Source: Alphaproteobacteria bacterium
GTDB taxonomy: Bacteria; Pseudomonadota; Alphaproteobacteria; SP197
Direction: 5' to 3'
NCBI GenBank assembly: GCA_016869675.1
Contig: VGDP01000009.1
Coordinates: 1-64,000 of the forward strand
Length of the DNA: 64,000 nt
Of the stretch, positions 16,020 through 19,019 are shown piece by piece. The translations under genes and the position numbers were made by a program. Every line of letters starts with the position of its first letter. The stretch's first letter is position 1. Below the pieces are notes generated by a model. The model saw nothing but the letters and a program-made list of their open reading frames with translations. It did not search any database and was not told the DNA's origin.

Positions 16020-17141
16020 ATGGCGAAGCAGGACTACTACCAGACGCTGGGGGTCGAGCGCGGCGCCGACGCGGCCGCGCTGAAGTCGGCGTACCGCAAG
16101 ATGGCCATGAAGTATCACCCGGACCGCAATCCCGGTGACGCCGACGCCGAGCGCAGGTTCAAGGAAGTCAGCGAGGCGTACGAGGTCCTGAAGGACGACC
16201 AGAAGCGCGCCGCCTACGACCAGTACGGCCACGCCGCGTTCGACGGCGCCGGCCAGGCGGGCGGTGCCGGCGTCGACTTCTCGTCGACCTTCGCCGACAT
16301 GTTCGACGACCTGTTCGGCGAGCTGGGCGGCCGGAGTCGCGGGCGCGGCGGCCAGCGGCGTGGCGGCGACCTGCGTTACAACCTGGAGATCTCGCTCGAG
16401 GACGCGTTCAAGGGCAAGCAGACCAAGGTCCGCGTGCCCACGGCGGTGGTGTGCGAGTCGTGCACCGGCAGCGGCTCGGCCGATGGCGCCCAGCCAAGCG
16501 CCTGCCCGACCTGCGGCGGCACCGGCAAGCTGCGCGCCCAGCAGGGCTTCTTCACCATCGAGCGCACCTGCGCCACGTGCGGTGGCGCCGGCCGCGTGAT
16601 CCGTGATCCCTGCCGATCCTGCGGCGGCTCGGGCCGGGTGCAGCGGGACAAGACGCTGCAGGTGCAGATCCCCCCAGGCGTGGAGGACGGCACGCGCATC
16701 CGGCTCTCGGGCGAAGGCGAGGCCGGCCTGCGCGGCGCCCCGCCCGGCGATCTGTACATCTTCCTGGCGGTCAAGCCGCACCGAGTGTTCCAGCGCGAAG
16801 GCGTGACGATCCTGTGCCGCGTGCCGATCCCCATGACCACAGCGGCGCTGGGCGGCGCAATCGAAGTACCGACCATCGACGGCGCGCGCGCGCGGGTCAC
16901 CATCCCAGCGGGCACCCAGTCGGGCCACCAGTTCCGCCTGAAGGGCAAGGGCATGGTGCCCATGCGAGGCCAGGGGCGCGGCGACATGATCGTGCAGGCG
17001 ACCATCGAGACGCCGGTCAACCTGAGCGCCAAGCAGAAGGAGCTGCTGAAGGAATTCGACAAGGCGGGCAAGCACACCAGCCCCGAATCGGAAGGCTTTT
17101 TCGCCAAGGTCAAGGATCTGTGGAACGACCTGCGCGAGTAG
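16020..17141 (+). CDS. dnaJ: Chaperone protein DnaJ (Hsp40)
   Basis: Co-chaperone that delivers substrate and stimulates DnaK ATPase. 373 residues. The J domain ([16 protein letters not shown] ... [10 protein letters not shown]) has the HPD motif, and a glycine-rich linker follows. The zinc domain has four CxxCxGxG-type repeats ([36 protein letters not shown]). The C-terminal substrate domains end at [17 protein letters not shown]. The ATG at 16020 gives the standard N-terminus. TAG stop. Transcription is likely shared with dnaK through the hairpin at 15974. Confidence 0.99.
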
Positions 17142-17208
17142 CGCGCCGGGTCGCAATTCGCCGTCGCAGGACGTTAATGGTAGATTGCCCGTCACACAGG
17201 ACGCAGCC

Positions 17209-17428
17209 ATGACCGAATCACACAATCAGGCCAGCCGGGACAGGGTGCGCAGCTATCGCCGGCGCATGCGCGCGCGGCCTGCGCCAAGTCCGGATGTGGC
17301 TGCCCGATACGCGTACGCCCGCGTTCAAGGCCGAGGCGCGGCGGAAATCCCGGCTCGTCGCGCGAAGCCGGCGGGCAGGGGAGGACTAGGCGTTCGTCGA
17401 CGCCATCTCGGAGTTCAACGAAGGTTGA
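17209..17428 (+). pseudogene. Broken MazE-type (DUF3018) antitoxin
   Basis: Relic of the antitoxin of a type II toxin-antitoxin pair. ATG 17209 starts MTESHNQASRDRVRSYRRRM, the usual helix of the DUF3018/MazE-like group. Near 17276-17283 one base is missing: in the next frame the sequence continues GLRQVRMWLPDTRTPAFKA and ends ISEFNEG with TGA at 17426-17428. A second lesion, TAG at 17387-17389 (in ...AGED-stop-AFVDAIS), also breaks the continuation; relatives I recall have Gln there, so CAG to TAG is plausible. Its stop overlaps the toxin start by 3 bp, the normal arrangement of the intact pair. Confidence 0.8.
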
Positions 17429-17748
17429 AGCGGGGCGAGATCTGGACCGTTTCCGCCACGGGCTACGCCGGAAAACCTCGGCCAGCCGTGATTGCTTAAG
17501 GCGACGATTTCGCGAATTCGGACTCGGTGACCATTTGTCCTCTGACATCCGATCCGACCCTCGCCCCATTGATCCGTATTCCGATCGACCCTAGTGACGC
17601 GAACGGCCTTAGGTCGAGGTCGCAGCTCATGGTCGACAAGATCACAAAGGTGCGGCGATCGAACCTGGGACGACGTGTCGGCCGCCTTGCAGCACCCGAG
17701 ATGCGAGCCATGAACCGCGCGATGCTGGTGTTTCTTGGGTTGGATTGA
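17425..17748 (+). pseudogene. Broken MazF/PemK-type toxin
   Basis: Relic of a MazF-family mRNA interferase. From TTG 17425 it reads KRGEIWTVSATGYAGKPRPA, which is the family's first strand with the RP loop. It then meets TAA at 17497-17499, where relatives carry VQ or VQGDD (CAA to TAA likely). After the stop the same frame continues unbroken to 17748 through SVTICPLTSDPTLAPLIRI, SQLMVDKITKV (containing the conserved DKI), LGRRVGRL and MNRAMLVFLGLD. Except for the stop the toxin body is complete at 108 codons. Together with the broken antitoxin it is a dead or silenced TA pair. Confidence 0.85.
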
Positions 17749-17891
17749 GTGAGCGCGCCGAACGCTCGGCGTCTAGGAGACCGCTCGCCGCGGAATGGCC
17801 TCGGCCCACGCCGGGCAACGCCATGGCCCTTTCGCCAAGCGCGCGACTGCGCCATCATCGCGGCCACGACGCCCACGCCCGAGGAAGCGCC

Positions 17892-19019
17892 ATGAGCCAG
17901 ATCGCCCGTACCGGGCCGCTCGCCGCGTTCGACACGGATCCCGCGCGCTCGCGCACGCTGCCCGGCTCCTACTACCACGACCCCGCCATCTTCCGGCGCG
18001 AGACGACCGCGCTCTTCCACGCCACGTGGCAGTACGTCGGCCACGTCGCGATGCTGCCCGATCCCGGCAGCTACATCGTGCGCGACATCTTGGACCAGAG
18101 CGTCGCGCTCGTACGCGGCGCCGACGGCGTGATCCGCGCCTTCTTCAACGTCTGCCAGCACCGCGCCCACCGCCTGCTGGAAGGCGAGGGCAACGTCAAG
18201 GCGGTCATCACGTGCCCCTATCACGCGTGGAGTTACGGGCTCGACGGTGCCTTGCGCACGGCGCGCGGTGCCGAGCGCATGGCGCGCTTCGACCAGGGCG
18301 CGTTCTGCCTGACCGCGGTGCCGCTGGGCGAGATGCTGGGCTTCCTGTTTGTCAACCTGGACGGCAAGGCCCCGGCCTTCGAGACCGTGACCGGCGCGTT
18401 GAAGGCCGAGATCGCTGCGTACTCGCCCAACGCGGCGCGGCTCCTGTGCGCGCACCGCAACGAGTTCCCGCTCAAGGCCAACTGGAAGAACTCGGTCGAG
18501 AACTACGACGAGTGCTTCCACTGCCCGGTGCAGCACCAGTCCCTCATCGCCGAGGCGCTCGACTACGCGTCCTACCGGGTGGTGACCCACGAGCATCACC
18601 ACAGCCACACCAGCCGCGCGCCCGACAAGCGTCGCTATACGACCGTCACCGAGGGCGCGGCGAAGCCCGACGCCTTCGCGAGCTGGCTGCTGTTTCCCAA
18701 CTGGTGCATCGAGGCGTACCCGGGCGGCAACCTGACGGTGTTCCACCACGTGCCGATCGGGCCCGAGCAGACGGTGCAGCGCTGCGAGTGGTACTTCCCG
18801 CACGCCACGTCGACGGCGGTCGAGCGCGAGGTGATCGAATTCGTCGACGTGGTGCGTGCCGAGGACATTCCGATCTGCGAGAGCGTGCAGAACGGCCTGC
18901 ACAGCCTGGGCTACCGACGCGGCGCGTTCGTGGTCGACGCGGCGCGCTCCGAGGTGAGCGAGCACGCGGTGCACGACTTCCAGCTCAAGGTGCTACGCGC
19001 GCTGGGCAAGGCGGGCTGA
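17892..19019 (+). CDS. Rieske non-heme iron oxygenase, alpha subunit (betaine/carnitine-type)
   Basis: A 375-residue ring-hydroxylase-type alpha subunit. The Rieske [2Fe-2S] site is CQH (Cys 88, His 90) and CPYHAW (Cys 108, His 111). The mononuclear iron site sits in NYDECFHCPVQH, with His 210 and His 215 and an acidic bridge at Asp 206/Glu 207. The pattern and length are closest to the GbcA/CntA/stachydrine demethylase group, which remove methyl or oxidise quaternary amines; the substrate is inferred. I chose ATG 17892; the frame is open 49 codons upstream, without recognisable sequence. No reductase gene is adjacent; dapB follows 12 bp later and is probably co-transcribed. Confidence 0.85.
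   Translation: MSQIARTGPLAAFDTDPARSRTLPGSYYHDPAIFRRETTALFHATWQYVGHVAMLPDPGSYIVRDILDQSVALVRGADGVIRAFFNVCQHRAHRLLEGEGNVKAVITCPYHAWSYGLDGALRTARGAERMARFDQGAFCLTAVPLGEMLGFLFVNLDGKAPAFETVTGALKAEIAAYSPNAARLLCAHRNEFPLKANWKNSVENYDECFHCPVQHQSLIAEALDYASYRVVTHEHHHSHTSRAPDKRRYTTVTEGAAKPDAFASWLLFPNWCIEAYPGGNLTVFHHVPIGPEQTVQRCEWYFPHATSTAVEREVIEFVDVVRAEDIPICESVQNGLHSLGYRRGAFVVDAARSEVSEHAVHDFQLKVLRALGKAG

What the first reader, a model, noticed from the sequence alone, without database searches (positions are those of the whole stretch)
17209..17748. MazEF toxin-antitoxin pair with three disabling lesions
The antitoxin has a one-base deletion and an amber stop, and the toxin has an ochre stop, yet everything between reads as a clean MazE/MazF pair. 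Loss of the toxin should come first or together with the antitoxin, because losing the antitoxin alone would be lethal. A small fossil of the order of TA decay sits next to the heat-shock operon.
Basis: partly seen in the sequence, partly recalled or inferred. Interest (0 to 1): 0.5.

Follow-up and report, generated by a model that had tools for sequence, protein, structure and literature searches.

The report
Dead MazEF-like toxin-antitoxin gene pair
A small bacterial toxin gene and its antidote gene, lying between the dnaJ gene and a Rieske-type oxygenase gene in an alphaproteobacterium, are both broken by stop codons or a frame change; this looks like an ordinary example of how such pairs decay, and the order of the breaks cannot be read from this one genome.

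Summary
Window 17209-17748 carries the remnant of a MazE-like (PF11455) / MazF-PemK (PF02452) operon (E 4.2e-15 and 1.4e-18). There are three disabling lesions: a frame change in mazE at about 17275, TAG at 17387-17389 in mazE, and TAA at 17497-17499 in mazF. The frame change is not a one-base deletion: the later mazE frame lies one base further on (net +1, or -2). It carries ribosomes from the mazE start into the mazF frame. The order of loss is not recoverable: no other genome of the genus is held, and 15 of 15 family relatives show no such pair at this site. mazF keeps 20 of 21 conserved columns, the exception being its stop; mazE has changed 4 of 14. TA decay is already described. Interest is low. 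Side lead: a type ISP restriction enzyme fused to a MazE tail.

The parts
17209..17274 (+). mazE remnant, N-terminal 22 codons (ATG start) in the first frame
   Evidence: Translation; resembles SRDKVRAYRERLRA of L011 by eye; my own MazE profile gives only 5.4 bits, E 0.25, for this piece alone (L016 frame 1)
17275..17276 (+). Point of frame change in mazE: net +1 (or -2), in a GC-rich palindromic stretch
   Evidence: Frame arithmetic; palindrome 17257-17276
17276..17428 (+). mazE remnant, rest of the gene in the second frame (GLRQVRMWLPDTRTP...FVDAISEFNEG, TGA 17426-17428)
   Evidence: PF11455 E 4.2e-15; own-genome search G000:C9:17267-17416 with 1 TAG
17387..17389 (+). TAG inside the mazE frame
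   Evidence: the relatives' column is Gln in 20 of 40
17425..17748 (+). mazF/pemK remnant, apparent TTG start overlapping the mazE stop, own TGA at 17746-17748
   Evidence: PF02452 E 1.4e-18; 1 TAA inside; 20 of 21 conserved columns kept; codons checked
17497..17499 (+). TAA inside mazF after 24 codons
   Evidence: the relatives' column is Gln in 39 of 42
17209..17499 (+). Open frame (96 aa) from the mazE start through shifted mazE into the first 24 mazF codons, a by-product of the frame change

Best explanation
A MazE-like/MazF type II toxin-antitoxin operon came to lie between dnaJ and a Rieske oxygenase gene in this lineage (arrival, probably by transfer, is inferred from its absence at this site in relatives and its presence on plasmids) and has decayed. 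While alive it would have worked like other MazEF modules: MazF, an mRNA-cleaving ribonuclease, held inactive by bound MazE, with mazF translated from a TTG start overlapping the mazE stop. Now MazE is out of frame after 22 residues and has an internal TAG, and MazF stops after 24 residues, before its conserved Thr column and most of its fold, so neither protein should function. Shown: the two families, the lesions, the retained conserved columns, no such pair at this site in 15 of 15 family relatives. Inferred: loss of function, past activity, arrival by transfer. Not resolved: which lesion came first. Loss of MazF function first, or both at once through the mazE frame change, are both compatible.
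For: Pfam matches over both curated cut-offs; stops found independently by whole-genome family searches. The neighbouring dnaK, dnaJ, Rieske, dapB and nth frames each have only their terminal stop, so a general run of sequencing errors is unlikely. TAG ends 13 and TAA 3 of 38 long high-GC3 open frames of the window, so neither codon looks reassigned. Intact copies exist: 38 of 62 PF11455 loci have both genes open, and 280 plasmid records have a MazF match, at up to 56% identity, with rows annotated 'PemK/MazF family toxin' and 'antitoxin MazE family protein' (12 of 280 seen). No MazE or MazF match in the dnaJ-dapB or dnaJ-Rieske interval of 15 family relatives. mazF GC3 is 0.69 against 0.90-0.95 in the five neighbours.
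Against: No reads and no second strain were available, so a consensus error at one of the three places cannot be excluded. The low GC3 is no sign of decay: intact mazF of 6 relatives range from 0.68 to 0.88. MazF keeps every conserved residue except at the stop; in a neutral simulation on the L011 mazF, 13% of runs had no conserved change at the first stop, so this is unremarkable but gives no sign of long drift. mazE looks more worn than mazF (4/14 against 0/20 missense, Fisher p 0.02, chosen after looking; 0.13 if the stop is counted), which does not especially favour toxin-first.
Confidence: 0.9

Rival explanations
1. Sequencing or assembly error in a functional pair: some or all of the three lesions are consensus errors.
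For: 97-contig draft; the frame change sits in a GC-rich palindromic stretch; the mazF body is fully conserved at the 21 scored columns apart from the stop.
Against: Three lesions in 540 bases, two of them in-frame stop codons rather than length changes, while five neighbouring genes are clean; mazE also has 4 of 14 conserved columns changed, more than any of 40 intact MazE.
Confidence: 0.06
2. One-hit disarming (a version of the decay reading that concerns order): the mazE frame change came first and silenced both genes at once, because ribosomes starting at mazE no longer stop at the mazE/mazF overlap but run on in the mazF frame, giving at most a MazF with a foreign N-terminal extension. 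The two stops followed neutrally.
For: After the change the mazE start is in frame with mazF, with one open frame 17209-17499; the apparent mazF start is a TTG overlapping the mazE stop, so its translation was probably coupled (inference); mazE carries more missense change than mazF.
Against: Coupling is not demonstrated; a direct start at the TTG would free the toxin; other start-like codons lie in the same frame at 17245, 17266 and 17296; the asymmetry is weak and post hoc.
Confidence: 0.2
3. Toxin-first decay, as the reader proposed (again about order within the decay reading): the mazF stop arose first and mazE then drifted freely.
For: In the 62-locus survey MazE without MazF is common (14) and one open MazE has a broken MazF (L015); the only MazE with an internal stop beside a full-length MazF (L010) has Ala at the Thr column of that MazF. 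In the same genome a second, unrelated pair at G000:C23 has an open AbrB-type MazE and a frame-split MazF.
Against: mazE is at least as worn as mazF here; the survey was seeded on MazE and is blind to MazF alone; solitary MazE could also be retained genes with a role of their own rather than stages of decay.
Confidence: 0.5

Closest known systems
MazE-like (PF11455) / PemK-MazF (PF02452) type II toxin-antitoxin modules
   Same: Both families, gene order antitoxin-toxin, overlapping stop/start, conserved Arg, Thr and other columns of MazF
   Different: Both genes are interrupted here; not a working module
Relatives in the same bacterial family: L011 (G004) and, for MazF, L014 (G006)
   Same: 52% and 51% identity in MazF; L011 has the same TTGA overlap
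   Different: Other genomic sites; L011 has both genes open; L014 keeps only the C-terminal half of MazE, fused to a type ISP enzyme
Decaying chromosomal TA systems, e.g. ccdO157 of E. coli (Mine et al. 2009, not held, known here only through passages of PMC7167474 and PMC2654758)
   Same: Loss of chromosomal TA loci; PMC7167474 names deletion and accumulation of nonsense mutations
   Different: That work concerns one system across the E. coli species; here there is a single genome

Membership tests
MazF/PemK toxin family PF02452 | Match over the curated cut-off along the whole domain | tested here: met
   67.5 bits against 23.1, profile 1-107 of 109, stop masked
MazF/PemK toxin family PF02452 | Conserved catalytic Arg and Thr | tested here: met
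   R (42/42) and T (38/42) columns kept in the remnant's letters, though the Thr lies beyond the stop. Arg28/Thr51 of K. pneumoniae MazF are critical (PMC8086154 passages). The Arg correspondence is supported by the EndoA alignment; that alignment puts the EndoA Thr one column off, so the Thr correspondence rests on motif and recall
MazF/PemK toxin family PF02452 | Uninterrupted reading frame | tested here: not met
   TAA at 17497-17499
MazE-like antitoxin PF11455 | Match over the curated cut-off | tested here: met
   55.9 bits against 22, profile 12-62 of 65, stop masked
MazE-like antitoxin PF11455 | Uninterrupted reading frame | tested here: not met
   Frame change at about 17275 and TAG at 17387-17389
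Functional type II toxin-antitoxin module | Toxin arrests growth and antitoxin neutralises it | not testable with these tools
   No experiment; both frames are interrupted
Decay series with datable order | Sister strains that share subsets of the lesions | tested here: inconclusive
   No other genome of the genus held; 15 of 15 family relatives show no such pair at this site

The most novel reading that the evidence does not exclude
The mazE frame change was a one-hit event that removed the antitoxin and, by carrying ribosomes past the overlap into the mazF frame, the toxin as well, giving MazEF operons with overlapping genes a way to lose the antitoxin first without killing the cell.
Probability: 0.2. 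Interest if true: 0.35.

Novelty: new member of a known kind. Interest (0 to 1): 0.14.

Why it matters
As a single fossil it matters little: chromosomal TA modules are known to decay by nonsense mutations and deletions (PMC7167474 passages). It would gain value as one data point in a broad survey of decay order. The small survey here suggests a rule worth testing: among the loci that could be judged, none has a MazF with its conserved residues surviving without at least the C-terminal half of MazE. If overlapping genes allow one-hit disarming, the expected order 'toxin first' would not be compulsory.

Tried and rejected
Stop-codon reassignment: rejected. TAG ends 13 and TAA 3 of 38 long high-GC3 frames of the window, and the dnaJ TAG falls where DnaJ of one relative (L047) also ends (by eye). 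Low GC3 of mazF as a sign of decay: rejected, since intact mazF of 3 of 6 relatives are as low (0.68-0.70) and the other 3 are 0.81-0.88. TTG start as a lesion: rejected, shared with L011. Insertion marks: 3 short direct-repeat pairs and 1 overlapping palindrome in 17000-18000, none flanking the pair convincingly. Antitoxin more worn than toxin as evidence of antitoxin-first: only a hint. Papers: searches. Read as passages only: PMC7167474, PMC8086154, PMC2701414, PMC2654758, PMC4803016. PMC2666520 is not held. One search returned no paper. A search of the own genome for the C-terminal part of the G006 fusion found nothing and had no positive control.

Full report
WHAT IS THERE. Translating 17209-17760 in three frames gives, in the first frame, MTESHNQASRDRVRSYRRRMRA; in the second frame, GLRQVRMWLPDTRTPAFKAEARRKSRLVARSRRAGED, a TAG, then AFVDAISEFNEG and TGA; and again in the first frame, a 107-codon MazF-like stretch interrupted by TAA after 24 codons. 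Pfam on the stop-masked pieces gives PF11455 (MazE-like) at E 4.2e-15 and PF02452 (PemK/MazF) at E 1.4e-18, both over the curated cut-offs. Whole-genome family searches hit the same places and count the same stops. The pair is real and both genes are broken.

CORRECTION. GGC of GLR starts at 17276, 67 bases after the start at 17209, so the later frame lies one base further on (net +1 or -2).

HOW WORN IS IT. Against 42 full-length, stop-free MazF of related loci, the remnant keeps 20 of 21 columns that are at least 90% conserved; the exception is the stop itself, at a column that is Gln in 39 of 42. Both the conserved Arg (42/42) and Thr (38/42) letters are kept; Arg28 and Thr51 of K. pneumoniae MazF are critical for activity (PMC8086154, passages; the Thr correspondence is by motif and recall). 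MazE is more worn: 4 of 14 aligned conserved columns differ, against at most 3 in 40 intact MazE (one of the two with 3 is L015, whose MazF is broken). In a neutral simulation on the L011 genes, 13% of mazF runs reach the first stop with no conserved change and 21% of mazE runs with four or more, so neither figure is remarkable. The contrast 4/14 against 0/20 has p 0.02, but it was chosen after looking, and is 0.13 if the stop is counted.

WHERE IT LIES. The window is contig C9 of a 3.49 Mb, 97-contig genome. The 12 closest named records by the Rieske protein (63-73% identity) are all titled as metagenome-assembled genomes, 9 of the 12 as Alphaproteobacteria or Rhodospirillaceae. The genome has 15 relatives in its family and none in its genus in the held set. 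In 14 of the 15, dnaJ is followed by dapB within about 1.25 kb. In G004, dnaJ and the Rieske gene lie about 5 kb apart on one contig; from matching identities and spacing this appears to be record L047 (Baikal-deep-G51), where Rieske is followed by dapB. My MazE and MazF profiles found no match in these intervals in any of the 15 (for G004 the middle of the gap was read in L047 only). So the pair arrived, or was lost elsewhere, since the split from G004; arrival is the simpler reading. Plasmid records carry related pairs.

ORDER OF DECAY. I asked what related loci show. PF11455 was sought in 61 genomes (matches in 11) and in 385 genomes of the class (matches in 46); both counts include the own genome and the sets overlap. 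The matches gave 62 loci for classification, the window included: 38 with both genes open (35 by fixed thresholds, 3 judged by eye); 14 with no detectable MazF in 0.9 kb downstream (6 of these MazE near full length and open); 1 open MazE with a broken MazF (L015); 2 with only the C-terminal half of MazE beside a full-length MazF (L014, L188); 1 MazE with an internal TGA beside a full-length MazF whose Thr column is Ala (L010); 1 with a run of N (L177); 4 cut by a contig end (L005, L007, L012, L183); and the window. Among the 57 that could be judged, none has a MazF with its conserved residues standing without the C-terminal half of MazE. In MazE of the AbrB type the C-terminal part binds the toxin (PMC4803016 passage); that the same holds for PF11455 is inference. 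A caution for L010: in some MazFs the Thr-to-Ala change lowers activity only a little (PMC8086154 passage). The survey was seeded on MazE and cannot see MazF alone. It fits toxin-first or together in general, and it does not date the window's lesions.

SECOND PAIR. The only other PF02452 place found in this genome (E up to 10), G000:C23:7511-7818, is an open AbrB-type MazE (PF04014, E 5.4e-12) followed by a MazF split between two frames (PF02452 pieces E 1.2e-9 and 1.5e-6). So both PF02452 places of this genome, 2 of 2, are broken.

VERDICT. An ordinary TA pseudo-operon, correctly recognised, with one lesion misdescribed and an order-of-decay story that one genome cannot carry. Decay of chromosomal TA systems is an established observation (PMC7167474 and PMC2654758 passages).

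Noticed in passing
L193:5457-10660 (G006:C1, about 884456-889659): A full-length type ISP restriction-modification enzyme (Mrr nuclease, helicase, coupler, methylase, Type_ISP_C) is fused in frame, just after where other type ISP matches end, to the C-terminal half of a MazE (PF11455 28-63; 21.7 bits, just under the cut-off of 22), and an open MazF overlaps its stop. Of 33 matches listed in 385 genomes of the class, only G006's own spans both parts; the 60 plasmid rows seen of 230 all end before the MazE tail. If real, loss of the restriction enzyme would free the toxin (inference).
   Followed up: partly
L002:1250-1823 (G000:C23:7260-7833): Second MazEF of the window's genome: AbrB-type MazE open, MazF split between two frames.
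   Followed up: partly
L010 (G043:C1:4534136-4534327): MazE with an in-frame TGA at a column that is Trp in 40 of 40 intact MazE, beside a full-length MazF whose conserved Thr column is Ala, in a one-contig genome.
   Followed up: partly
L188 (G350:C105): Short open frame with an unrelated N-terminus and the C-terminal half of MazE, followed by a full-length MazF.
   Followed up: no
L176, L178, L179, L180 (genomes G368, G198, G291, G369): Near full-length open MazE-like genes with no MazF detected in 0.9 kb downstream, in three genomes of one genus and one of another family; possibly a conserved solitary antitoxin.
   Followed up: no
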